From a virus: a stretch of 63,823 bases of DNA. Location of the stretch: IMG/VR virus record IMGVR_UViG_3300031720_000003, positions 1-63,823 of that record; one strand, 5' to 3'. The first letter of the stretch is position 1; each line of letters opens with the position of its first letter. Under the pieces are notes generated by a model that worked only from the letters and a program-made list of their open reading frames with translations, was not told where the DNA came from and searched no databases. Both the position numbers and the translations under genes were made by a program. Below are positions 1 to 63,823 of this stretch, in pieces.

Positions 1-256
1 CCGTGCTGCTGTCGCAGGCCGTCACCGCGCTGCAGCCGGACGCCGTCACCGTGCAGCTGCCGTAGGCCGTCACCGTGCTGCTGTCGGAGGCCGTCACCGT
101 GCTGCTGTCGTAGGCCCTCACCGTGCTGCTGCCGGAGGCCGTCACCGTGCTGCTGCCGGAGGCCCTCACCGTGCTGCTGTCGAAGGCCGTCACCGTGCTG
201 CTGTCGGAGGCCGTCACCGTGCTGCTGTCGTAGGCCGTCACCGTGCTGCTGCCGGA
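1..256. repeat. 24-bp coding tandem repeat, left part
   Basis: About eleven imperfect copies of a 24-bp unit (plus strand GTCACCGTGCTGCTGTCGGA plus four variable bases). It is entirely inside the repeat-protein gene and in frame, and is continuous with the array at 63627-63823. There are no unique spacers, so it is not a CRISPR. Confidence 0.9.
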
Positions 257-349
257 GACTTCGAAGTACCCCTCGGTGAGGACGGGATAGTCGCCGGCCT
301 TGAGGGCAGCGTCGAGCTCCTTCTGGTTCTTGACGAGGACCTCTTTCAT
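1..349 (-). CDS. Repeat-rich DUF7666-type protein, N-terminal part (continues at the other window end)
   Basis: ATG at 349 overlaps the stop of the upstream HTH gene (ATGA). After about 31 ordinary residues (start MKEVLVKNQKELDAAL) the protein becomes a run of 8-residue units of the type SSTVTAYD / SSTVTASD / SSTVRASG, each coded by 24 bp, and runs off the left edge. The same repeat continues at 63823 on the same strand, so this is the N-terminal part of the gene at 63100-63823. Repeats of this kind probably form a regular beta-solenoid-like stack (inference). Copies nearest the edge are more diverged. Joining the two window ends directly leaves the frame wrong: about 7 bases of one repeat unit are missing. 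Confidence 0.8.
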   Translation of the reverse strand, partial: MKEVLVKNQKELDAALKAGDYPVLTEGYFEVSGSSTVTAYDSSTVTASDSSTVTAFDSSTVRASGSSTVTASGSSTVRAYDSSTVTASDSSTVTAYGSCTVTASGCSAVTACDSST

Positions 350-3497: not shown

Positions 3498-4634
3498 ATG
3501 CCGGGGAGGCGAGCCACCGGGGAGGGTTCCATCGTCCGCTACCGCGGGCGCTGGCGGGTCAGGGTGCGCTGGCGCGGCCGGGAGCAGACCTGGTTCCGGC
3601 CCACCCATGTCGAGGCGGCGGCCAAGCTGCGCAGCGTGCTTGAGCAGCGGGCCAAGGGCGTGAGCATCAACGGTGGGCGCCTGCCGCTCTCCCAGTGGTG
3701 CGAGGAGTGGCTGGCCCAGAGCACGCTCACTGCCCCCCGCTCGCAGGCGTTCTACGCGGCCAAGCTCGCCTACATCCTCCCCCAGCTAGGAGGCATCAGC
3801 CTCGACGAGCTGGAGCCCGCCGAGATCCGCCGCGCCCTCGCCGCGGTGGGCACACGCCACTCGCCGACCACCGTGCAGCACGTCTACCGCAGCCTCTCCA
3901 CCTGCCTCAACGCCGCGGTCAGGGAGCGACGGATCACCCGCAACCCGGCCGGTGACGTGCAAGCCCCGCAGCGCTCGGGATTCGTGGCCCAGACCCTCAC
4001 CGTGGAACAGGCCCAACGTTTGCTCGAGGTCAGCCGCGACTCGTGGATGGGGGCGCTGATCCATCTCGCCATCGCCACCGGGATGCGGCAGGGAGAACTC
4101 TTCGCGCTGACCTGGGACGACCTCGACCTCAGCGAGCGCCGTTTGAGCGTGACCAAGAGCCTCTCGCGCCAGAAGCACGCGGGCCCGACCAAGACCGCCG
4201 CCGGCCATCGCCAGCTCACCCTCGGTGCCTCGGTGGTCGCCAGCCTGCAGCACCAGCGCGCCCGGGTGGCGCAGATGCGGCTCGAGGCCCGCGACTGGAA
4301 GGACCGCAACCTCATCTTCCCCACCGTCACGGGTGGGTACCGGGCACCCTCGGGTTCCTTCTTTCGCGAGTTCCGGTCATTCCTGACCGAAGCTGAGTGC
4401 CCGCACATCCGCTTCCACGATCTGCGCCACACCGCGGGACTCTTTCTGACCCGCAGCGCGGGCTTGGTGGTGGCGTCGCGCATCCTCGGACACGCCTCAC
4501 CGACCATTACCGCGTCGTTGTACGGAGCTGCGCAACGCGATGACTTTTTGGCCGCGGCACGCTCCATGGACGAGTTGCTGATGACCCCTTCCCAGTCCCC
4601 CCCGGAGGTGCTACAGTCCCCCTCGCTCGGCTGA
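3498..4634 (+). CDS. int: Tyrosine integrase
   Basis: 378 aa. An N-terminal arm-binding region (RYRGRWRVRVRW) is followed by a SAM-like core-binding domain (about 60-150) and a catalytic domain with GMRQGELFALTWDD (box I Arg), HDLRHTAGLF (His-x-x-Arg), ILGHASPTIT (second His) and a Tyr in ASLYG. All catalytic residues are visible. It would insert phage DNA at a chromosomal attB; a tRNA-like attP core follows at once. ATG 3498 has GGAG just upstream. Function is well supported by motifs. Confidence 0.95.
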   Translation: MPGRRATGEGSIVRYRGRWRVRVRWRGREQTWFRPTHVEAAAKLRSVLEQRAKGVSINGGRLPLSQWCEEWLAQSTLTAPRSQAFYAAKLAYILPQLGGISLDELEPAEIRRALAAVGTRHSPTTVQHVYRSLSTCLNAAVRERRITRNPAGDVQAPQRSGFVAQTLTVEQAQRLLEVSRDSWMGALIHLAIATGMRQGELFALTWDDLDLSERRLSVTKSLSRQKHAGPTKTAAGHRQLTLGASVVASLQHQRARVAQMRLEARDWKDRNLIFPTVTGGYRAPSGSFFREFRSFLTEAECPHIRFHDLRHTAGLFLTRSAGLVVASRILGHASPTITASLYGAAQRDDFLAAARSMDELLMTPSQSPPEVLQSPSLG

Positions 4635-5203: not shown

Positions 5204-6130
5204 TTGAGTTGGGCGAGGCTCGATGACCAGATCCTCGACAACCCGAAGATTCTGCAAGCAGGGCCCATCGGATTTGCCCTGCACGTCGCAGCCATCACCT
5301 ACTGCTCGCGCAACCTGACCGACGGGTTCGTGACGTACGCAGTGGCCCGTCGACTGCTGATCACCTCATGGACCGAGGACGGCGATGACGGCAAGGTCCG
5401 CGTGCAATCGCTCGCCATGGTGTCGGGCATGTCGGGGTCAGATGGTCCAGAGGTCATCGACCACATCATCGAGTTGCTCTGCGAGGTCGGGCTGTGGGAG
5501 ATCGTCGAGCACGGCTATTTCCTGCACGACTACCTCGAATACAACCCCAGCCGGGAGATGGTGCTCGCCAAGCGCGAGGCCAGTCGCGACCGAGTGCAGG
5601 CGCACCGCCAGCGTGGCAAGGCACCTAGTAACGACGTTGGTAACGCAGCAAGTAACGGCGGCGGGAACGCCGAAGGTAACGGGGGTAGTACGCGTCCTCC
5701 CGTACCCCGTACCCGTAACCCGGTACCCGTACCAGAGTCCCGAGATAAGACCGCATCACCTAACGGTGATGCTCGTCATCTGGCTGAGGTCGGAGCGGTG
5801 TTCATGAGGGTGTGGAACGAGCACTGCGACCCTCTGCCACGGCTCCGAAAGCTCCCCCCGAGCAGAGACACGCAGCGGCTGATGCGGCAGGCACTGGAGC
5901 ACTTCGACGGCAAGGAGGTGAAGCTGGGAGAGGCGGTCGCGCGGTGTGCTCTGAACGACCACTACCGCGAACACCGCTACGGGGTCGAAGCGTTCTGCCG
6001 ACACGTCGCGAGGTGGGCAGAGCCGGGCATGCCGTACGTGGCGCCCACGAAGCCGCCTATCGAGAACCCAAAGGATCGCCAGATTCGGGAGTTCAGCGAG
6101 CGCTGGCTGGGACAGGAGGCGACGGCATGA
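5204..6130 (+). CDS. Replication initiator / replisome organiser (DnaD-like)
   Basis: 308 aa from TTG 5204 (LSWARLDDQILDNPK), where the coding character begins; the open frame extends upstream without plausible homology. The N-terminal half (about 1-130) is a helix-turn-helix domain of the phage replisome-organiser type. A repetitive linker (about 140-185, SND/GNA/SNG tetrapeptides, then PVPRTR-like) follows, and the C-terminal half (VFMRVWNEH ... HYREHRYGVEAFCRH) resembles DnaD-like helical domains. It is followed with an ATGA overlap by a probable helicase loader, as expected for an initiator/loader pair. The linker DNA itself carries iteron-like repeats. Confidence 0.7.
   Translation: MSWARLDDQILDNPKILQAGPIGFALHVAAITYCSRNLTDGFVTYAVARRLLITSWTEDGDDGKVRVQSLAMVSGMSGSDGPEVIDHIIELLCEVGLWEIVEHGYFLHDYLEYNPSREMVLAKREASRDRVQAHRQRGKAPSNDVGNAASNGGGNAEGNGGSTRPPVPRTRNPVPVPESRDKTASPNGDARHLAEVGAVFMRVWNEHCDPLPRLRKLPPSRDTQRLMRQALEHFDGKEVKLGEAVARCALNDHYREHRYGVEAFCRHVARWAEPGMPYVAPTKPPIENPKDRQIREFSERWLGQEATA
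5628..5734. repeat. Iteron-like repeats inside the initiator gene (candidate origin)
   Basis: GTAACG occurs at 5628, 5640, 5652 and 5676, with GGAACG at 5664 and GTACGC at 5688, so six sites are spaced exactly 12 bp apart. They are followed by a cluster of CCGTAC/CCCGTAACC units (5699-5734). In phage lambda the origin iterons also lie within the initiator gene O; by analogy this may be the replication origin. Confidence 0.55.
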
Positions 6131-8180: not shown

Positions 8181-8593
8181 GCGACCTCGCCAAGGTGCTG
8201 CCGTTGCAGCGCTCCTACGAGATCACCGTGCCGCTCAGTGAGTTGCCGCCCAGCATGAACGCTCGGCTGCACTTCCGGCGCCGCGCGTCGAAGGTGGCCA
8301 ATGCCCGCGCCATCACGGCGCTGTATGCGCGCGAAGCCCGGCAGAAAGCGCGGGTGCATCAACCGTTCCAGCGTGCGGACGTGGCGGTGACGGTGACCTG
8401 GCCCAGTTCGCGCAAGGGCCCGTTGCCGGACGCCGATAACACGGCATCCAGTGTCAAGCCGCTGCTCGATAGTTTGGTGGGGATCTGGCTCGTCGACGAT
8501 TCCCCGAAGTGCATCCGCACCATCTCATGGACATCGACCAAGCACGGGGATCGCCTGGAGGTGGTGTTCACCATCACTCCGGTGTCGAGCTGA
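8177..8593 (+). CDS. RusA-like Holliday-junction resolvase
   Basis: 138 aa. RusA-type features: LPPSMNARLHFR at the N-terminus, LPDADNTASSVKPLLDSL carrying the catalytic Asp pair, then WLVDDSPK with the third acidic site. It would cleave branched DNA made during phage replication and recombination. GTGA and TGATG overlaps tie it to both neighbours. Confidence 0.8.
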   Translation: MSDLAKVLPLQRSYEITVPLSELPPSMNARLHFRRRASKVANARAITALYAREARQKARVHQPFQRADVAVTVTWPSSRKGPLPDADNTASSVKPLLDSLVGIWLVDDSPKCIRTISWTSTKHGDRLEVVFTITPVSS

Positions 8594-13057: not shown

Positions 13058-14302
13058 TCAGGCCCCCGGGGCGATCACGCGCCCGCTGAGCACTGTCTGG
13101 GTCGCGTATTCGACGCTGTAGTGGATGGTGTCGGTGATGGTCTTCTGCATGTTCAAACCCAGTCGTGGTTCGGTGGCGGTGAACACGTCATCAATGTCGA
13201 AGAGGGGGTTGTTGGGCGCGCTCACCGACAAGGTGTATGCAGAGGACAGCGACACGCCGAGGTTGAACTGCGCCTCCGACAATGCCTGTGCCGACGACGT
13301 GATCAGGCTGTCCATGATGAAGTTGGGCGCCCGCCCGATCCCCCCGCCCACAAACGTCGGTGAGGCGGAGTTGTTGTCGGCGGCTTCGGCCTGGATCGGG
13401 GTGTTGGTGCCGGTCAGGTTCTGCGCCCCGGTCGCGGCCACGAAGATGTCGTTCTTGACCCCGTCGCGGGTCATCGCCAAGGTCACCGCTGCGGGAGTGG
13501 TGAACGGTGTGCCCCCGATGGGATGCACGTAGGTGCCTTGCGCGGTCACCTCACCGGGATAGAAGTTCCACACCGGAGCCAGTGAGGAGAGTGATCCGCC
13601 CGCGGCTGAACCCGGAATGGGTTTGCCAGTGAGCACGCCGTTGACATCGAAGAAGAGCTGCTGACCGCCTGACTGGGCCATGTCCAAGCACGCCTGCCAG
13701 GGATCCTGTCCCTGGTTGTACGTGCCCGCCGGCACCACGTACGACGAGCCGCCCTGAAAGTTGGGATTGGTGATCCAGGGTGGCACGGGAATGCCCACCG
13801 AGCCCGGCCCGTTGTTGTTCCAGATGTAGCTCAACAAGGCCACGACCTCATCCTCGAGCACCCCACCCGCTGCGGGAACCGTGTAGTTCTGCAGCAGTTG
13901 CCACTGCGAGAAGGGCCAGCTGCGGTCGAACAACTGCAGCGTGCAGGTGAGGTTGTTGCCCGTTGAGGCGGTCGTGGTCGTTGCAATCGCGTACACACCC
14001 AGAGGTGCCCAGCCGTTGGCTCCGATCTGTCCCGTCTGGATGTCCGGGGCCAGCACGGTCATGGCCACCGACACCTCCGTACCGAAGGGGGCAAGGGGCG
14101 AGGTGGGATCCAGCGGCAAATACGGCACCTGCTGTCCCGACCACAACACCGTCTGCGGTGGGATGGAAGGGACGATCTCGACGGTCAGCTCGCCCTGCCG
14201 GCGCTGTGCGCTGTTGCGATCGACGGTGAAGTCAGCCTCAGAGACAGGCAGGTAGATGCTGGTGCTCTGTCCGCTGTTCATGACGTTCAACTGGCACGCC
14301 AT
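13058..14302 (-). CDS. Minor tail protein (DUF5047-like)
   Basis: 414 aa from ATG 14302. Begins with ACQLNVMNSG and SEADFTVDRNSAQRR, then LTVEIVPS, a start I associate with DUF5047-type siphovirus minor tail proteins, and ends two bases before the collar gene. Probably part of the distal tail. Its upstream neighbour is on the other strand, so the 10278-14302 block may need its own promoter; TTTATAGA near 14330 (minus) is a possible -10. Confidence 0.65.
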   Translation of the reverse strand: MACQLNVMNSGQSTSIYLPVSEADFTVDRNSAQRRQGELTVEIVPSIPPQTVLWSGQQVPYLPLDPTSPLAPFGTEVSVAMTVLAPDIQTGQIGANGWAPLGVYAIATTTTASTGNNLTCTLQLFDRSWPFSQWQLLQNYTVPAAGGVLEDEVVALLSYIWNNNGPGSVGIPVPPWITNPNFQGGSSYVVPAGTYNQGQDPWQACLDMAQSGGQQLFFDVNGVLTGKPIPGSAAGGSLSSLAPVWNFYPGEVTAQGTYVHPIGGTPFTTPAAVTLAMTRDGVKNDIFVAATGAQNLTGTNTPIQAEAADNNSASPTFVGGGIGRAPNFIMDSLITSSAQALSEAQFNLGVSLSSAYTLSVSAPNNPLFDIDDVFTATEPRLGLNMQKTITDTIHYSVEYATQTVLSGRVIAPGA

Positions 14303-14401: not shown

Positions 14402-14437
14402 AGACCGCTTGCGTTCTGTTGTCCCGCTCTCTACAAT
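14402..14437 (+). promoter_or_regulatory. Promoter with overlapping operator
   Basis: TTGCGT (14409-14414), 17 bp, TACAAT (14432-14437). The palindrome-like AGACCGCTTGCGTTCT (14402-14417) covers the -35 and differs at one base from the complement of the operator at 3184-3199. Transcription would start near 14444 and be blocked when the operator is occupied. Confidence 0.65.
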
Positions 14438-14440
14438 GCG

Positions 14441-14473
14441 AAGCCCCTGGAGCGGTTGGGCTCCGAGGGGCTT
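14441..14473 (+). promoter_or_regulatory. 5' leader hairpin
   Basis: AAGCCCCT-GGAGC pairs with GCTCC-g-AGGGGCTT: 13 base pairs with one bulged G and a 6-base loop, right at the expected transcript start. No T-run follows, so it is not a terminator. It could protect the transcript or be bound by a protein. Confidence 0.6.
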
Positions 14474-14504
14474 CTAACCACCAACCTGTGTGGAGGTCAA
14501 TGGC

Positions 14505-15152
14505 GTGGCTATTAATGGTACGGCGACTGCTGTCAGGCCAACAGAAGAGCGCACTTTCGTGGAAGCAGCCCTCACGCTGGAGCCGCTACAGATCAGTTCC
14601 GTGGACATTCGCGTCGAGGGGCTGTCCCCGCTGAGCACACATCGCTGGTCGGAGAAGGCCAAACGGATGATGCTCGAGGCGCAGAGCGGCAAGGCACGCA
14701 AGCGCAAGGAGCCGAAGGATCCCGACGCGGACTACAACGACGCGCGCTACCGAATTGACGCTAAGCGCGACGGCATCCCCGCGATCTGTTTCAAGGCCGC
14801 GATCGTCGGCGCGGCTCGTCACTTCGAAGGCATCCCCATGACCGTTCTCAAGACCGCAATCTTCGTTGAGGGCATCGGCAAGGAGCAACTCATCCCAATC
14901 GAGGGCAAGCCCGAGAAGTGGGAGGCGACGGTGCGCATCGCCATGGGCACTGCCGACCTGCGCTATCGTCCACTGTACTGGCCATGGTCTGCGGTGCTGC
15001 CGGTGCGCTTCGTGGCGTCGACCATCTCGCTTGACGCTGTCTACGCTTTGGTCGATGCTGCCGGCTTGGGTGGCGTCGGTGAGTGGCGTCCCAGCGCACC
15101 AAAGTCGCTCACAGGCTCCTACGGTCGATTCAAGGTTTCAGTGGAGGCTTAG
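14505..15152 (+). CDS. Conserved phage protein of unknown function, gene 1 of the pentamer-array locus
   Basis: 215 aa from GTG 14505, with GGAGG 8 bases upstream; GTG 14490 would bury that site. Mixed alpha/beta with a Lys-rich middle (SEKAKRMMLEAQSGKARKRK), then GIPAICFKAAIVGAAR, IPIEGKPEKWEA, MGTADLRYRPLYW and GSYGRFKV near the end. I recall proteins of this general pattern paired with the next gene in other phages, but know no function. It is on the plus strand inside the minus-strand tail operon. Confidence 0.75.
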   Translation: MAINGTATAVRPTEERTFVEAALTLEPLQISSVDIRVEGLSPLSTHRWSEKAKRMMLEAQSGKARKRKEPKDPDADYNDARYRIDAKRDGIPAICFKAAIVGAARHFEGIPMTVLKTAIFVEGIGKEQLIPIEGKPEKWEATVRIAMGTADLRYRPLYWPWSAVLPVRFVASTISLDAVYALVDAAGLGGVGEWRPSAPKSLTGSYGRFKVSVEA

Positions 15153-15154
15153 CC

Positions 15155-15616
15155 ATGGCACTCGCCACCGCTCCGACGCTGGTTTACGAAGGACTGCCCG
15201 ACGCTGCGCTACGCGAGTTGGAGCAGCTCCATGAGCAGGATGGGGCGCTTCGACCTGAACGTGTTATCGAAGTCGCGGCTGATGCCGATAGCCCTCTGCA
15301 CAGCTACTTCGAGTGGGATGACACCGAGGCGGCTCGGCAGCACCGCATCGCACAGGCACGTCAGGTGATCCGGTCGGTCAAGGTCTATGTCAGCGATCGC
15401 CCTGCTGTGCAAGTGCGTGCCTACGTGTCCATGGGCGTTGAGCACGGACGGGCGTATCAGCGCACCAGCCAGGTCGTGAACAATGAGTTCACTCTGAACG
15501 AACTGCGGCGATCACTCGGTCGTGATCTCCAGCGGATCCAGCGGAAGCTACAGCTCATTGATGAATTCGCCGAAGCCGCAGCGGGACTCAACGGCGTTAT
15601 TGCCATGTTGTCCTAG
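15155..15616 (+). CDS. Conserved phage protein of unknown function, gene 2 of the pentamer-array locus
   Basis: 153 aa from ATG 15155, 2 bp after the previous stop, with GTGGAGG upstream. Key stretch SPLHSYFEWDDTEAARQHR, then QARQVIRSVKVYV, VRAYVSMG, and a C-terminal basic helix pair (LRRSLGRDLQRIQRKLQL). Predominantly helical and basic enough at the C-terminus to bind nucleic acid (inference). It ends 65 bp before the phased pentamer repeats. Confidence 0.75.
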   Translation: MALATAPTLVYEGLPDAALRELEQLHEQDGALRPERVIEVAADADSPLHSYFEWDDTEAARQHRIAQARQVIRSVKVYVSDRPAVQVRAYVSMGVEHGRAYQRTSQVVNNEFTLNELRRSLGRDLQRIQRKLQLIDEFAEAAAGLNGVIAMLS

Positions 15617-15681
15617 GGGCAGCAATGGCGCGCACAGGCGAGCACTGAAGGGGACAGCCCTGCGGTGGAATGGTCAGTCTT

Positions 15682-16015
15682 GGAACGGCACGGCAGCATT
15701 GGAATGGCAGTAACGGCTAGCTTGGCCCGGCACCGCACTGCAGCGCACCACTGCGCAACGACACGGAATGGCAGTAATGGCGTGGCGAGCAAGGCACCGG
15801 ATTGGCAGCATGGCAGCGGTGCGTCCTGCGTGGGTCGGTCAAGCAAGGCATGGCAGGGCACAGGTACGCATGGGATTGCAGTGGCAGTGGTGGATAGCCA
15901 CGCGAGGGACGGCAATGTTAAGCAAGGCATTGGCAGCAGTGGACAGGCGAGCCCTGGGCTGCCGGGCACAGGCAGGCTACGGTATGCAGCGCGACGGCAC
16001 GGTTTGGAATGGCAG
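15682..16015. repeat. Degenerate pentanucleotide-phased array
   Basis: Low-complexity DNA with strict 5-bp phasing and consensus G-(G/C)-N-N-N, often GGCAN. In block 15793-15887, 17 of 19 consecutive pentamers start with G. In block 15906-16015, 19 of 22 start with G and all 22 have G or C second. Earlier blocks (15730-15789, 15701-15720, 15682-15696) keep the pattern, with small insertions resetting the phase. Several frames are open across it, but 5-bp phasing argues against a conserved protein. Confidence 0.75.
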
Positions 16016-16094
16016 TAGAGGCTGGCGTCGGAGTGCGACGCACTGGCGGGCGTTGGACAGGCTCGCAATGTAGCGCAGAGGCAGGCTAACCGTG

Positions 16095-16127
16095 CTCAGG
16101 ACGGCGGCGATGTGTCGTCGTCCTGAG
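16095..16127. other. Perfect inverted repeat at the end of a tail gene
   Basis: CTCAGGACG (16095-16103) and CGTCCTGAG (16119-16127), 9-bp arms with a 15-base loop, overlapping the stop codon of the 48-aa minus gene and lying between it and the pentamer array. No T-run on either strand; it may be a processing or attenuation hairpin. Confidence 0.6.
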
Positions 16128-16242
16128 TCTCATCCTCGGGGTGCAGCAGTTCACGAGCGGCATCAAGCAACCACTGCGGTGTCCGATCCGATCGCAGAAT
16201 CGTCTCGCGACCGTGCAGAACAACGACCGGAGCGGGATCCAT
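16096..16242 (-). CDS. 48-aa tail-operon micro-protein
   Basis: ATG 16242, 8 bp after the long tail protein; GTGAGG upstream. Begins MDPAPVVVLHGRETILRSD, then WLLDAARELLH and an acidic tail. Coding logic is good: a compact hydrophobic core, and it fills the space exactly. Function unknown. Confidence 0.6.
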   Translation of the reverse strand: MDPAPVVVLHGRETILRSDRTPQWLLDAARELLHPEDETQDDDTSPPS

Positions 16243-16250
16243 GCTGTGCC

Positions 16251-18758
16251 TCACACCGCTGGACGCGGGGTGGCAATGCCACTCACTCGCATGACCCGAT
16301 GCGGACCCGACGACGTGCTCGGCTGCAACTGTGTGTTGTGTGCTGGGGCGCTGCCCATGCCACCGGGGGTTTGCGCGAGCCGATAGTAGGGTGAGAGGTT
16401 GACGCCGCCGAACGGATCAGACACGAACACACTTTGCTGCGACGTACAGAGCGCCACCATGCCGCTGTACTGCGCAGCCGTGAACAACTCCAGCGTTGCG
16501 GCCATGTCCGGCCGCTGCACGGCGTACGCCATGATCGCTGCGGTCTGTTGCCCGAGCACTTGATGCGCTTGCGCCTGCTCGCTGACCGAGGGGTTCCAAT
16601 CAACAGCGTTAGCGAGCGTCGCAGTAGTCGGGTTGGTCGGGTTGAACCACCACCACCCTTGTCCTGCCGCAATGGTTTGTGCTGACGACGTTGCCGTGGG
16701 GCTTGAGATGGTCGACGCGCCCACCACCGCGGAAATAGTCGCGGTGTACGAATACGCCACCGTGGGCACGCACTCCGGGTCGTACACCACGACCGACTGG
16801 GTGCCGACTGGAATGCTGGTCGGATTCGTCGTGCTGGCTAGGCGCACGTAGACGCCGTCACTGCGCAGGATGGACAGGGTTGTGCTGCCCACCAGTCCAC
16901 CGCGCGCCCATGTTGACACCGTGCCGGGGAACAGGCCCATCTCCACCACGAAATGGTTCTCACCAGCTGAGGACACGGTGAGCACGATGGCGGCGAAGGC
17001 AGCATTGGCCGGTGCCGCTGCAGTGATGGACGCTTGGGTCCACGCAGAGGACACATCGCTCACCGCCGAGGAGGTGGAGGTGGAGAGCAGCGTGCCCGAG
17101 CTGTTGTACCAAGCGATGCCCACCGTGGCGTTGCGCGCCGTCGACGCCGAGCGGAACGAGGCCAATCCGCTGTACGTCTGTCCCACCGTGACCGCGATGC
17201 CCGATGTTCCTGTCGGCGTGGTGGCTGAGAGCGTGCCCGAGCCCGCCATCTGCAGGCTGTACGTGCCTTCTGCGGTCGGTGGGGTGGGGCTCGTGGCTGC
17301 GGAGAGAGTCGTGCCCCCGCCCGCCGTCCAGCCTGTGGTGTTGCCGTTCACCAGCGCTGCTTGATTCGTGGTCAGGTAGTTGTCAAACGCGTTGACGGTG
17401 AGCACGACACAGGGCAGCGAGGTGCCCGGATACGTGCCCAATGAGGAGACGATGGTGGGGGTGTTCGGTGAGTCCAGCTGCACCGTGTAGCCGGTGGACA
17501 CCCACGCTGAGGTTTGACCACCCGGGCTCTGGGTGATCTGCACGTAGGAGGCCACGGTGGTGTTGTTGGGGAGCGTGTTGACCACCGTGTACGAGGACGC
17601 GAGCGGATCGCTGACCACGCCGGAGTCGTCCAGTGAGGGGCCCGAGCCGGGGGTGAAGCCGGGGGCGCCGTACTGCGCTGCCGAGTAGGTGACCACGCGA
17701 TACGCGCTCTGGGTAGCACCGGAGGCCAGCGAATCGGACCACGTCACTGACGGTGTCTGCGTGGTGGTGAGCGTGCCGGTGGGGCCGGTGACGGTGACCG
17801 AGGGGCCGACCTGTGCGGTGACCGTGAAGTCGGATGCGTACGGGCCCGTGCCGGAAGAGTCAACGGACGCGACCGACCAGTTGTAGACGTTGCCGTCCGT
17901 CCACACCCCGCCGGCGAAGGTGATGCTCTGGGCGGTCGAGGTGTTCGCGATGTCCGTGCCCTGAAAGGCCGACCCTCCCGCGTTCCAGTAGTTGTACGAA
18001 CCGCCCGAGATCTTCTGGCGGAAGTGGTAGCCGGTCTCTCCTCCGGTGGCGCTGCCTTTGTAAACCCAGGTGAAGGGGCCGCCGTTGGTTTGCAGATCGC
18101 TATAGACCGCGTTGCTGGGAGCCGTGAGTGAGGGTGCAGGCGGAGCAGGGGGGATGAGCGCAACGGTGAGTGACGACCACTCCACGAGCTGGCTTGAGGT
18201 GGCGCTGCCCGGTGCCGACGACCCCGGCGATCCGGGTCCGGTGTAGTCGCCAGCGACGATGCCGACTGCTGTGGAGGTGACGTTGGCTCGAGCCGTGACA
18301 CCACCTGGGGCGGTGAAGGTGACGCCGTTGAAATAGGTGCCGGCCCAGAACACCACCACCTTCTCGCTGGCCTGGGTGGTGGTCACCGAAGCGGCCGCGA
18401 AGCTAGTGGCTCCCGAGCCGTTCGCCGACTGCCGTTGCGCTTGCACGTCGATCTGCGCCCCGGTGTAGTCGAGGATCGCCGCAGCGAGGTTCTGGTTGCC
18501 GACGTTGGTGGTAAACGTGTACGAACTGGGTTCGCTCGAGCCCGCGCTCTTCTGATACAGCGCAGCCGCCCCGGCCGTGTTGCTCATCAGCGTGCCCAGC
18601 GCGCTCCACCCAGTCGGGGCTGAGTAGGTCGCGGGATCGTCGCCGCCGATAACCATGGCCAGCAGCAAATCGCCCGAGGCAGCTCCGGCAGGTTTGTTCA
18701 CGGTCACCGAACTGCCGAGGTTGTTCCCCGTGCTCGATGAGCGGAAGGTGACCGCCAT
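16251..18758 (-). CDS. Large minor tail protein (Ig/FN3-like domains)
   Basis: 835 aa, ATG 18758 directly after a TAG. The N-terminal about 200 residues (FRSSSTGNNLGSSVTVNKP) look like a lectin/Ig-like virion domain. Then come several FN3-like blocks (APSLTAPSNAVYSD, YNWSVASVDSSG, TGTLTTTQTPSVTWSD), and a C-terminal region that may bind the tail tip (QRPDMAATLELFTAAQYSG). Downstream of the tape measure, it is a typical siphovirus tail-tip or adhesion protein. Confidence 0.75.
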   Translation of the reverse strand: MAVTFRSSSTGNNLGSSVTVNKPAGAASGDLLLAMVIGGDDPATYSAPTGWSALGTLMSNTAGAAALYQKSAGSSEPSSYTFTTNVGNQNLAAAILDYTGAQIDVQAQRQSANGSGATSFAAASVTTTQASEKVVVFWAGTYFNGVTFTAPGGVTARANVTSTAVGIVAGDYTGPGSPGSSAPGSATSSQLVEWSSLTVALIPPAPPAPSLTAPSNAVYSDLQTNGGPFTWVYKGSATGGETGYHFRQKISGGSYNYWNAGGSAFQGTDIANTSTAQSITFAGGVWTDGNVYNWSVASVDSSGTGPYASDFTVTAQVGPSVTVTGPTGTLTTTQTPSVTWSDSLASGATQSAYRVVTYSAAQYGAPGFTPGSGPSLDDSGVVSDPLASSYTVVNTLPNNTTVASYVQITQSPGGQTSAWVSTGYTVQLDSPNTPTIVSSLGTYPGTSLPCVVLTVNAFDNYLTTNQAALVNGNTTGWTAGGGTTLSAATSPTPPTAEGTYSLQMAGSGTLSATTPTGTSGIAVTVGQTYSGLASFRSASTARNATVGIAWYNSSGTLLSTSTSSAVSDVSSAWTQASITAAAPANAAFAAIVLTVSSAGENHFVVEMGLFPGTVSTWARGGLVGSTTLSILRSDGVYVRLASTTNPTSIPVGTQSVVVYDPECVPTVAYSYTATISAVVGASTISSPTATSSAQTIAAGQGWWWFNPTNPTTATLANAVDWNPSVSEQAQAHQVLGQQTAAIMAYAVQRPDMAATLELFTAAQYSGMVALCTSQQSVFVSDPFGGVNLSPYYRLAQTPGGMGSAPAHNTQLQPSTSSGPHRVMRVSGIATPRPAV

Positions 18759-53852: not shown

Positions 53853-54710
53853 TCAGTTGTTGTGAAGGATGTCCAAGTACGTGCCCATCCCGGATGGGCT
53901 CTGCCATTCAGCTGCACACTCGACTGAGTGTCCCTCTCCCCATTCGTTCATGCTGCAAACGAGTTGCCACGGGGCTTTGCTCGCCACCATCGCGTTCACC
54001 GCCGTCTGAAACTGCGCAGGATCACGCACCAGACGCGGGGATGTTTCATTGAACTTCCAAAATCCCGGCGACACCTCAAACGAATGTCCCACGATCACGT
54101 TCTGTGAGGATGCAGGGCCATACTGGTGGACCTGTGCTGGCGGATTCGCACACGTCTGCCAGCCCTTGAACACCTTGAGATTCGTGTAGAACGCGTTCCC
54201 TACCGCTACGTTGGCTTGGTGCCAGCGGCTGAACATGTCGCAGGTGTCAGCGCCATCACCGTACGCGAAGATGACGGGTGCGCCGCTGATGTGGAGGTAC
54301 GCCGGGTGGCTCGCGTACTTGCTCTTGATGTAGTTCAGATCACTGGTGAGTTGCGCGACGGTGGGATTCGGCGACCCGGTCACGCCTGAGACGGCGTTGC
54401 CCTCCGCCTCATAGTAGGGGCAGATCGAAAAGCCGACTGCGGCCGCAGCATCGAGCAGCAGCGGGAAGTGCTGATCCTCGAAGGACCCCTGTCCCCACCA
54501 ACTCGCGATCGCAGCCTGGATCTTGCCGTACTGCATCATCGCGACGTGCGCCGCGAGGATGGTGGCGTTGCCGGTGTCGTAGAAGCCGAGCGCGGGATGG
54601 TAGTGCGTGGCCAGGTTGTAGCCACTCTGCGACCAACCGTGCCAGCCGGGTGCCTGACTAAACCACGGATAGTAAAAGGCGGCGCGAACCGGCAGCGTCA
54701 GATTCGCCAT
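53853..54710 (-). CDS. GH99-like endo-glycosidase (candidate depolymerase)
   Basis: 285 aa. VRAAFYYPWFSQAPGWHGW, then YDTGNATILAAHVAMMQYGK and IASWWGQGSFEDQHFPLLLD, with the Asp/Glu loops of GH99/GH71-type barrels; CSMNEWGEGHSVECAAEW carries the NEW-EG signature, and APVIFAYGDGADTC lies between. Members cleave alpha-mannosides or related glycans. No signal peptide; as a fibre-operon gene it is likely carried on the virion to cut host surface polysaccharide. Confidence 0.7.
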   Translation of the reverse strand: MANLTLPVRAAFYYPWFSQAPGWHGWSQSGYNLATHYHPALGFYDTGNATILAAHVAMMQYGKIQAAIASWWGQGSFEDQHFPLLLDAAAAVGFSICPYYEAEGNAVSGVTGSPNPTVAQLTSDLNYIKSKYASHPAYLHISGAPVIFAYGDGADTCDMFSRWHQANVAVGNAFYTNLKVFKGWQTCANPPAQVHQYGPASSQNVIVGHSFEVSPGFWKFNETSPRLVRDPAQFQTAVNAMVASKAPWQLVCSMNEWGEGHSVECAAEWQSPSGMGTYLDILHNN

Positions 54711-56167
54711 CAGTGGAATGTGACCGTCAGCGTCGGGGCATGCGCACTCTCACGACTAGCAACGCGTTGTATCCATCCGGCCACGCTGAACGACAGGCCG
54801 AAGTCTGCTTCACTGCCCGACGAGCAGGGCACGTCCACGCTCACTGTCGCGTTCAGGCTAGGTGTCGAGGTGGTAGCGAGCACGGTGCTGTTCCAGGCCG
54901 GCTGCGAGCTCCACGTCGTGCTCTCTGTCCATCCGGTCGCTTCGGGATGCACTTGGATGCCGCCTGAGCTGGGCGCCACCGTGGAGTAGAGATGCAGCGT
55001 GCATGTGTCCACCGTGCCTGCGGGCAACGGGAAGCGCAGCAGTGATCGGTACTGCGAAGCGCTCGCGTCCAGTTCTGCGCTGCCACCGTACGACGGGCCC
55101 GGAGCGCCGCCGTACACGTAGGTGTCCACGCTGGCCGTCTCGGTCACCGTTTGCTCACCGCTTGGCGTCGGTGTCGCCGTGGCCGTTGGTGTGCTCGTCG
55201 GTGTTGCGGTGGGCGTCGCCGTTGCTGTCGCGGTGACTGTCGGTGTCGGTGTGGGACTCGTCGAGGGGAACGCCCCGCTCAGATCCCCGTTCGCTGCATT
55301 GCTGGCTGCGCCCGTGAGTGGGAGGCCGAAGGCTTCCTCGATGGCGCGCAGAGTGCCGTAGTGGTTCAGCCCAGAGGTGAACTGCCCAGCCGACTTCGAG
55401 GAAATCACAATGGTGGCGATGTGGCCACCGCTCGAGCCGTTGAAGCCAGCGTTGCTTGAGCCCTCATCGAAGGTGAGGATCACGACGCCGTTGGTGGCGA
55501 ACCAGGGCGACGATAGGACCGCGGGGAGGCGGTTCTTCAGCCAGGTATCGCCCTGCGAGATCGAACCGTCGTGCATGTCGTCGTTGAGATTGGGGGTCAC
55601 CCAAGCGAACGACGGGCCCCCGCTCGCGTTGAGCGCACCCGAGAGGTCACTGGGCAGCGGCACGTCGTGCGACGCGCAGGTTGCACCCAGTACATCGCTC
55701 AGGTAGACAAAGGGGTTGTGTTTTTTCGCGTACGCACCAGACGATGCCCCCGTGTAACACGCGGACGGCATGGTCTCCATGTACGCTTTCCAGGGGATCC
55801 CCGCTGCGCTCAGCTCACCGGGAAGATCCGGGCCTGCGAACGGTCCGCACGATGTGCAGTCGTCGGTGACACCGTGCGTTGAACCCGTCGTCAACGCGAG
55901 GTAGTTGGGCAAACTGGGGTGCGTCGTCGCGTACGACTGCGTTGCGAGATTGTGCTGCTGCGCCAGTGAGTTGATGTACGGCGCGCTGCTGCTGCCGATA
56001 ATCGACGTTATTTCGTGATTCTCTTCGACGACCACAAGGATGTGCGGAGCCGCGCTACTCGCTGTGCTCTGCCCCACCAGCCCGATGCCGAGCACCGTGC
56101 CAGTGAGCAGCAGTGCCGCCGCGCCAGCCCCGAGGACAGCGCGCGGATAGGTGGTGCGCAGCCTCAC
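54710..56167 (-). CDS. Secreted phosphoesterase with C-terminal DNRLRE (CBM96-like) domain
   Basis: 485 aa from GTG 56167, chosen because it makes a GTGA overlap. A signal peptide or anchor (VLGAGAAALLLTGTVLGIG) leads to a phosphoesterase/acid-phosphatase domain of the PLC-like alkaline-phosphatase superfamily: HILVVVEENHEITSIIG, YATTHPSLPNYLALTTGSTH with the nucleophile-type Ser/Thr, WLKNRLPAVLSSPWF, VVILTFDEGSSNAGF and GGHIATIVIS. A Thr/Pro linker (PTPTPTVTATATATPT) joins a DNRLRE domain (VDTYVYGG ... RSLLRFPLPAGTVDTC). A cargo-like gene for a phage. Confidence 0.75.
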   Translation of the reverse strand: MRLRTTYPRAVLGAGAAALLLTGTVLGIGLVGQSTASSAAPHILVVVEENHEITSIIGSSSAPYINSLAQQHNLATQSYATTHPSLPNYLALTTGSTHGVTDDCTSCGPFAGPDLPGELSAAGIPWKAYMETMPSACYTGASSGAYAKKHNPFVYLSDVLGATCASHDVPLPSDLSGALNASGGPSFAWVTPNLNDDMHDGSISQGDTWLKNRLPAVLSSPWFATNGVVILTFDEGSSNAGFNGSSGGHIATIVISSKSAGQFTSGLNHYGTLRAIEEAFGLPLTGAASNAANGDLSGAFPSTSPTPTPTVTATATATPTATPTSTPTATATPTPSGEQTVTETASVDTYVYGGAPGPSYGGSAELDASASQYRSLLRFPLPAGTVDTCTLHLYSTVAPSSGGIQVHPEATGWTESTTWSSQPAWNSTVLATTSTPSLNATVSVDVPCSSGSEADFGLSFSVAGWIQRVASRESAHAPTLTVTFH

Positions 56168-56346
56168 CGTCGCGCCGCCTGCTCCAACCGCCATCTCCCG
56201 TACACGAAGCGGTGCAGCTCCCCGCAGCTGCCACAGCGCCAGAGCTGGCCGAACATGGCCCGGGGACTCGGTGGGCTGCATTCATGCGCCGGCTGAGGCC
56301 GGATGAGCGCGGCCACCTGGGCACGCAGATCGAGAGCGGTGGGCAT
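56164..56346 (-). CDS. 60-aa zinc protein
   Basis: ATG 56346 with AGGAGG 7 bases upstream; its TGA overlaps the next GTG (GTGA). MPTALDLRAQVAALIRPQ, then HECSPPSP and WRCGSCGELHRF, forming a zinc site. First gene of the fibre/host-recognition operon. Unknown. Confidence 0.65.
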   Translation of the reverse strand: MPTALDLRAQVAALIRPQPAHECSPPSPRAMFGQLWRCGSCGELHRFVYGRWRLEQAARR

Positions 56347-63099: not shown

Positions 63100-63823
63100 C
63101 TACGCCGCGGCCTTCTTCGCCGTGCGCTTCGGCTTAGCTGGCTCGATACGGTTGCCTTCGATGTCGACTTCGTAGCAGGGCGCACAGACGCGCGGCGCCT
63201 TGACCTTGTCGGGGAACTGGGCGTCCCATCCGTGTGCGGCGATCTCGCTCACCTTCACCGGGCAGGCCACGATGTGCTTGAAGTCCGGGTTCCAGCGGTG
63301 CGCCATCCAGGGCTGCGGGAAGAAGTGCAGCCCGCCACCGCACTCCGCCTTCCCGCCATCCCAATCGGCAGCACTCGGTGTGGTGCCGGGCTTGTACGAC
63401 ATGCCATACGCGCTCTTCCACTGCGCGTCGACTGCCTTGTACAGGACCGCCACGCCACGCTTCACCTCGACGCCCTGCGCGTCGCACCAGGCCTTACCGG
63501 TGTTGATGTCGGGCGGCCGGATCTCGATGCCGCCCGTCACGGACACCTTGGCCCCGAGGATCGTCACCGCGACATACGCGGTGGCGATCACCTTGACGGC
63601 GTGCCGCGCAATGACTTGCGCGGCGCCGGAGGCCGTCACCGTGCTGCTGCCGGAGGCCGTCACCGTGCTGCTGCCGGAGGCCCTCACCGTGCTGCTGCCG
63701 GAGGCCGTCACCGTGCTGCTGTCGTAGGCCGTCACCGTGCTGCTGCCGGAGGCCCTCACCGTGCTGCTGCCGGAGGCCGTCACCGTGCTGCTGTCGTAGG
63801 CCGTCACCGTGCTGCTGTCGAAG
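63100..63823 (-). CDS. Repeat-rich DUF7666-type protein, C-terminal part
   Basis: Continues the gene from 349-1. A series of SSTVTAYD/SSTVRASG octapeptides ends about residue 65 from the right edge; then comes VKVIATAYVAVTILGAKVSV, IRPPDINTGKAWCDAQGVE and a C-terminal domain with VAVLYKAVDAQWKSAYGMSY, AECGGGLHFFPQPWMAHRWN and KIVACPV-type HIVACPVKVSEI, then Lys/Ala-rich KRTAKKAAA. The Y-KAV...CG-GLHF arrangement fits DUF7666-type phage domains. Conservation and function unknown; no start is seen at this end because it runs over the edge. Confidence 0.75.
   Translation of the reverse strand, partial: FDSSTVTAYDSSTVTASGSSTVRASGSSTVTAYDSSTVTASGSSTVRASGSSTVTASGSSTVTASGAAQVIARHAVKVIATAYVAVTILGAKVSVTGGIEIRPPDINTGKAWCDAQGVEVKRGVAVLYKAVDAQWKSAYGMSYKPGTTPSAADWDGGKAECGGGLHFFPQPWMAHRWNPDFKHIVACPVKVSEIAAHGWDAQFPDKVKAPRVCAPCYEVDIEGNRIEPAKPKRTAKKAAA
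63627..63823. repeat. 24-bp coding tandem repeat, right part
   Basis: About eight near-identical 24-bp units in frame with the repeat protein, continuing at position 1. Copies here are more uniform than those at the left edge, as if recently expanded. Confidence 0.9.

What the first reader, a model, noticed from the sequence alone, without database searches (positions are those of the whole stretch)
14402..16015. Operator-controlled antisense locus: two unknown genes followed by a 5-bp-phased degenerate array
Seen: promoter TTGCGT-17-TACAAT, a 5'-terminal hairpin (14441-14473), genes 14505-15152 and 15155-15616 with strong ribosome sites, then 334 bp in which pentamers G-S-N-N-N repeat in fixed phase (36 of 41 pentamers start with G across 15793-15887 and 15906-16015). 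All of it is on the plus strand inside the minus tail operon. Translation of such DNA gives meaningless repeats in several frames, so it is more likely a nucleic-acid element (a decoy, RNA scaffold, variable array or recombination substrate) served by the two proteins. I have a vague memory of similar low-complexity tracts beside similar gene pairs in other phages, but no citation.
Basis: partly seen in the sequence, partly recalled or inferred. Interest (0 to 1): 0.92.

Follow-up and report, generated by a model that had tools for sequence, protein, structure and literature searches.

The report
Phage VIPR locus with GGCA-punctuated guides
This phage carries a VIPR system, a recently described relative of CRISPR in which a CRISPR-like protein reads five-base RNA repeats as guides, and two of its eight guide segments spell conserved motifs of genes that rival temperate phages use to control lysogeny.

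Summary
The 5-bp phasing is real and the strongest in the window. It is longer and more ordered than described: 15618-16083 parses as 86 G-S-M-N-N pentamers in eight segments (14,2,12,6,15,9,15,13), each bounded by a GGCA tetramer. Gene 1 is a Cas7-like RAMP protein: its fold matches type III/VII CRISPR subunits, and its family profile matches the solved SUSP1 Vipr protein (E=1.9e-12). In a scan for the array alone, 37 of 38 fully flanked arrays have a gene-1 homologue within 2.5 kb, always on the same strand. This is the VIPR system (2026 preprint, PMC13142463), whose NN pairs read DNA with a 1-nt skip. That rule is reproduced here: 26 matches at skip 1 against 1, 5 and 6 at skips 0, 2 and 3. 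Matches stop at GGCA, so GGCA marks guide ends. Guide 1 spells the ImmA/IrrE motif AHELGHLVMH (44 viral contigs match 20/20; two controls 0). Guide 7 spells an integrase motif (best 27/30; own integrase 13/30). Most likely function: silencing lysogeny genes of competing temperate phages. No full-length perfect target was found. New member of a known kind; the tail-less GGCA-punctuated array may be a subtype.

The parts
14409..14437 (+). candidate promoter TTGCGT-17-TACAAT (weak)
   Evidence: pattern found once in the record; not recovered by the sigma-70 consensus scan
14440..14474 (+). 5' leader hairpin
   Evidence: folding z = -3.55 against dinucleotide shuffles
14505..15152 (+). vipr gene: Cas7-like RAMP protein (phrog_4652)
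   Evidence: phrog_4652 E 4.5e-35; AF2 pLDDT 86; all 50 listed PDB fold matches are type III/VII RAMP subunits; family profile hits SUSP1 Vipr 36pp_D E 1.9e-12
15155..15616 (+). accessory gene (vap-like), phrog_15946, function unknown, perhaps DNA-binding
   Evidence: phrog_15946 E 8e-24; present in 42 of 46 loci with gene 1; only insignificant fold matches, several winged-helix
15618..16083 (+). vrRNA guide array: 86 G-S-M-N-N pentamers in eight segments with nine GGCA tetramers
   Evidence: autocorrelation and HMM parse
15622..15691 (+). guide 1, 14 pentamers; decodes to the ImmA/IrrE motif [IM]A[HQ][DE]LG[HQ]LV[IM][HQ]
   Evidence: 10 NN pairs match 44 viral contigs exactly, 41 of them in frame as AHELGHLVMH; controls 0
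15696..15705 (+). segment 2, 2 pentamers (too short for a guide)
15710..15769 (+). guide 3, 12 pentamers, target unknown
15774..15803 (+). segment 4, 6 pentamers, target unknown
15808..15882 (+). guide 5, 15 pentamers, target unknown
15887..15931 (+). guide 6, 9 pentamers, target unknown
15936..16010 (+). guide 7, 15 pentamers; decodes to a tyrosine-integrase motif V[HQ][DE]LLG[HQ][RS]T[IM]ATT
   Evidence: 24/30 to the L119 integrase, 27/30 to the L233 integrase; own integrase 13/30
16015..16079 (+). guide 8, 13 pentamers, target unknown
16094..16128 (+). strong hairpin just after the array; possible 3' end or terminator
   Evidence: folding z = -4.84

Best explanation
The locus is a VIPR (Viral Interference Programmable Repeat) system carried on the plus strand between minus-strand genes. 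The array is transcribed with the two genes; Vipr (gene 1) proteins line up along the RNA, one per pentamer, holding the G-S-M triplet and displaying the NN pair. The NN pairs base-pair with double-stranded DNA and leave every third base unread, so changes at codon wobble positions do not matter. Each GGCA-bounded segment of about 9-15 pentamers is one guide. Two guides spell conserved motifs of an ImmA/IrrE-type regulator-peptidase and of a tyrosine integrase, so the phage most likely silences lysogeny genes of competing temperate phages while its own integrase is spared. Shown here by computation: fold, family, array grammar, strand and gene linkage, the skip rule, the guide boundary, the decoded motifs. 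Taken from the preprint or inferred: transcription, protein-RNA assembly, silencing, and gene 2 as a DNA-binding helper.
For: Fold and family of gene 1; array grammar; gene-array linkage from both directions and same strand; 1-nt-skip matches 26 against 1, 5 and 6 for the other skips; match 309/348 inside segments against 39/138 just beyond GGCA; decoded ImmA/IrrE motif with 44 exact matches and two empty controls; decoded integrase motif; own integrase spared; VIPR described in PMC13142463.
Against: No perfect full-length target was found for any guide of eight or more pentamers; five of eight segments have no identified target and one has only two pentamers; the triplet here (G-S-M) differs from the published GGY; gene 2 is not homologous to the SUSP1 accessory gene; no RNA or protein data for this phage.
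Confidence: 0.9

Rival explanations
1. The array is a structural or sequestering RNA: a Cas7-like (or TRAP-like) protein coats 5-nt repeats, and the NN pairs carry no information.
For: Strict G and GGCA positions with near-uniform NN would fit a coat or scaffold.
Against: Decoded NN pairs match real genes far more often at skip 1 than at other skips, and guide 1 matches 44 contigs against 0 in both controls.
Confidence: 0.04
2. The window's array is a decayed VIPR array with no remaining guide function.
For: The triplet has drifted from the GGC of relatives to G-S-M; one segment has only two pentamers.
Against: All nine tetramers are GGCA and 88 of 90 pentamers start with G; both genes are open; two guides decode to recognisable motifs.
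Confidence: 0.04
3. It is a DNA element (recombination substrate or protein-binding decoy) used as double-stranded DNA.
For: Long intergenic repeat tract next to two genes.
Against: 6044 repeat units on the gene strand against 65 on the other over 67 loci plus the window; arrays often lie between the two genes of the operon; Vipr homologues bind RNA (PMC13142463).
Confidence: 0.02

Closest known systems
VIPR system of Escherichia phage SUSP1 (type II VIPR; PMC13142463, PDB 36pp)
   Same: Homologous Vipr protein (profile E 1.9e-12 against the PDB chain; hhalign probability 98), 5-nt repeats with fixed triplet and variable NN, two-gene locus in a phage, 1-nt-skip code.
   Different: SUSP1 vrRNAs are separate units, each with a structured 3' tail; here guides are head to tail with only GGCA between them. 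The second gene is not homologous to SUSP1 vap1. The triplet in the window is G-S-M rather than GGY.
CRISPR-Cas type III and type VII Cas7 (Csm3 and relatives)
   Same: RAMP fold of gene 1; guide RNA held by repeated protein subunits.
   Different: No CRISPR repeats or cas genes in the cassette; 5-nt unit rather than 6; the guide is non-contiguous.
TRAP (trp RNA-binding attenuation protein), from own knowledge
   Same: Recognises triplets spaced about 5 nt apart in RNA.
   Different: Unrelated fold, spacers carry no information, regulates its own transcript.

Membership tests
VIPR | Vipr protein: ancestral RAMP fold with glycine-rich loop | tested here: met
   the conserved GxGEWRP..G..G block is in the alignment
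VIPR | vrRNA made of tandem GGY/NN (YNNGG) pentamers or a related consensus | tested here: met
   family G-G/T-C/T/A-N-N; in the window the related consensus G-S-M-N-N
VIPR | 9-16 repeats per vrRNA | tested here: inconclusive
   six of eight window segments have 9-15 pentamers, two have 2 and 6; the actual RNA ends are unknown
VIPR | accessory vap gene beside vipr | tested here: inconclusive
   a conserved second gene is present but is not homologous to SUSP1 vap1; vap2-6 could not be compared
VIPR | target recognition by NN pairs with a 1-nt skip | tested here: met
   in silico only:
VIPR | vrRNA expressed and bound to Vipr; repression of the target | not testable with these tools
   needs RNA sequencing, pull-down and a reporter
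VIPR type II (SUSP1 clade) | structured invariable 3' tail on each vrRNA | tested here: not met
   adjacent guides are separated by GGCA only; one hairpin follows the whole array
CRISPR-Cas type III/VII | Cas7 fold | tested here: met
CRISPR-Cas type III/VII | CRISPR repeat-spacer array with cas genes | tested here: not met
   no other gene in the cassette; the array has pentamers, not CRISPR repeats
TRAP | TRAP fold | tested here: not met
   all 50 listed PDB matches of gene 1 are RAMP subunits of type III or VII complexes

The most novel reading that the evidence does not exclude
A VIPR subtype in which tail-less guides are stored head to tail and separated only by GGCA, which marks where each guide ends (perhaps a processing site), and whose guides aim at the DNA of catalytic or conserved motifs in lysogeny genes, where protein conservation together with the wobble skip makes escape hard.
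Probability: 0.5. Interest if true: 0.78.

Novelty: new member of a known kind. Interest (0 to 1): 0.72.

Why it matters
In the library searched, VIPR is reported in a single 2026 preprint. This locus and its relatives give an independent computational reproduction of the 1-nt-skip code in a branch with another array layout and another second gene, indicate that GGCA marks guide ends, and let guides be read almost as peptides: two window guides point at an integrase and an ImmA/IrrE-type regulator. The same system sits, annotated as hypothetical proteins, in cultured Mycobacterium (Cheoctovirus) and Gordonia phages, where function can be tested directly.

Tried and rejected
Pfam and NCBIfam have no family for gene 1. 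TRAP-like ring and pure-scaffold readings were considered and dropped after the fold and target results. Array RNA shows no consistent extra folding (window z +1.3; others mixed), so a role through RNA structure of the repeats is not supported. Rfam: no match. Exact-match scans for guide 8 and for two cores of guide 7 found nothing in viral contigs; a search of 396 actinobacterial genomes for all of guide 1 with up to 3 mismatches found nothing. Recurrence of guide words between loci exceeds shuffles, but many of the listed pairs are near relatives, so it is not used as evidence. L130, the one fully flanked array locus without a gene-1 hit, was not pursued. Supplementary files of the preprint could not be read, so no VIPR type was assigned. 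First literature searches by repeat sequence found nothing relevant.

Full report
Observation. The plus strand between two minus-strand genes (13058-14302 and 16251-18758) holds two open genes, 14505-15152 and 15155-15616, then a 5-bp-periodic stretch. Autocorrelation at lags 5 to 25 (multiples of five) is 5.4-6.4 standard deviations above dinucleotide shuffles, and it is the strongest 5-bp signal of the 63.8-kb window. Of 90 pentamers called, four of them beyond the array proper, 88 start with G, and all nine tetramers are GGCA.

Linkage of array and gene. The gene-1 protein (phrog_4652) brought in 46 viral loci at 29-54% identity. All but L047, which is cut off inside gene 1, carry a 5-bp array close by, and 42 of the 46 also carry gene 2, phrog_15946. 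In the other direction, a scan of viral contigs for the array pattern alone found 120 stretches; of 38 with at least 2.5 kb on both sides, 37 have a gene-1 homologue within 2.5 kb, and all 184 hits to gene 1 and gene 2 are on the array's strand. Over 67 gene-oriented loci plus the window, 6044 repeat units lie on the gene strand and 65 on the other. The family consensus is G-G/T-C/T/A-N-N, with almost no G at position 3 and GGCA tetramers typically every 9-12 pentamers. Named carriers include Mycobacterium phages Saal and Brocalys, Gordonia phages Ecliptus and UmaThurman and cyanophage Cy-LDV1, where the genes are annotated as hypothetical proteins.

What gene 1 is. AlphaFold2 gave a confident model (pLDDT 86). 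All 50 listed PDB matches are RAMP subunits of type III or type VII CRISPR complexes (best E 2e-5, TM about 0.35-0.5). A profile of the family matched PDB 36pp_D, 'SUSP1 Vipr protein', at E = 1.9e-12, and the SUSP1 genome confirms homology in the C-terminal block. That name led to the preprint PMC13142463, which describes VIPR: a Vipr RAMP protein, an accessory gene, and vrRNAs of GGY/NN repeats whose NN pairs recognise double-stranded DNA with one base skipped between pairs, repressing competing mobile elements. The identification rests on this match; the experimental mechanism is theirs.

Tests of the code in this branch. Matches with E below 0.1 numbered 26 for a skip of 1, and 1, 5 and 6 for skips of 0, 2 and 3. 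Several of the best hits lie in vipr genes of other loci, at the EDMVR-G-M and GxGEWRP blocks, in line with the preprint's remark that some guides target other VIPR systems. For 16 of the best hits the match inside the segment is 309 of 348 bases; in the units just beyond the GGCA it is 39 of 138, which is chance level. Segments were defined by GGCA, so what this shows is that matches do not continue past it, which supports GGCA as the guide end.

What the window's guides say. Read as the first two bases of codons, guide 1 (15622-15691) gives [IM]A[HQ][DE]LG[HQ]LV[IM][HQ][FL]TT, which is the zinc-binding motif of ImmA/IrrE peptidases. Ten consecutive NN pairs match 44 viral contigs exactly; 41 of these carry AHELGHLVMH in frame, and the two proteins tested are helix-turn-helix plus Peptidase_M78 proteins. 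The same bases with the pair order reversed, or with a 2-nt skip, match nothing. The ten pairs were picked after the motif had been seen; the two controls use the same bases. Guide 7 (15936-16010) gives V[HQ][DE]LLG[HQ][RS]T[IM]ATT[FL][IM], a tyrosine-integrase motif: 24 of 30 bases match in the integrase of L119, and 27 of 30 in an integrase of one of 396 actinobacterial genomes, where the backward control matched none. The window's own integrase (3498-4634) matches at that motif in 13 of 30. The remaining segments have no identified target, and no perfect full-length target was found for any guide of eight or more pentamers. Matches to conserved motifs show what kind of gene a guide resembles; they do not show which phage is the target.

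Mechanism: shown and inferred. Shown by computation: fold, family, grammar, linkage and strand, skip rule, guide ends, decoded motifs. Taken from the preprint or inferred: transcription of the array, one Vipr per pentamer, repression of the target gene. Integrase and an ImmA-type regulator as targets suggest interference with entry into or exit from lysogeny of a rival temperate phage. Gene 2 has a confident model (pLDDT 92.7) but only insignificant fold matches, several to winged-helix DNA-binding proteins, so calling it a DNA-binding helper is a guess.

Comparison and novelty. The preprint sorts VIPR into seven types. In SUSP1 each guide has its own structured tail (compare its sequence); here guides are head to tail with GGCA between them, the second gene is unrelated to that of SUSP1, and in the window the triplet has drifted to G-S-M. 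The preprint mentions staggered arrays and related consensus motifs in supplementary figures that could not be read here, so this may already be covered. I therefore file it as a new member of a known kind, and state a GGCA-punctuated, tail-less subtype as the more novel reading that the evidence does not exclude.

Noticed in passing
window 1-257 and 63625-63817: The same 24-bp tandem repeat (in rotation) fills both ends of the record, so the contig probably broke inside a repeat and the genome may be circular or circularly permuted.
   Followed up: no
L003 guides at 5651 and 7732; L009 guide at 8589: Guides with partial 1-nt-skip matches (24/30, 21/24, 18/20) to the locus that carries them: perhaps guides against a close relative that the carrier escapes, or self-regulation.
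   Followed up: partly
L048 5667, L052 2697, L105 2781: Mycobacterium phages share one guide that differs only at single NN positions (AG/TG, GA/TA), while GGC stays fixed: NN drift between near relatives.
   Followed up: no
L027 5614-6120 and L029 5770-5860: Arrays that happen to lack stop codons read in frame into gene 2 as repeats such as RQGKARHGEAGHGR, which would be annotated as spurious low-complexity proteins.
   Followed up: no
L187 4576-5180: A vipr fragment with an array lies in a Methanothrix (archaeal) metagenome bin.
   Followed up: no
L130 5836-5882: The one array-pattern locus with full flanks but no hit to gene 1 or gene 2.
   Followed up: no
window 54713-56281, minus strand: Phage-borne protein with a phosphoesterase domain and a CBM96 carbohydrate-binding module, beside a Glyco_hydro_99-like protein at 53856-54710.
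   Followed up: no
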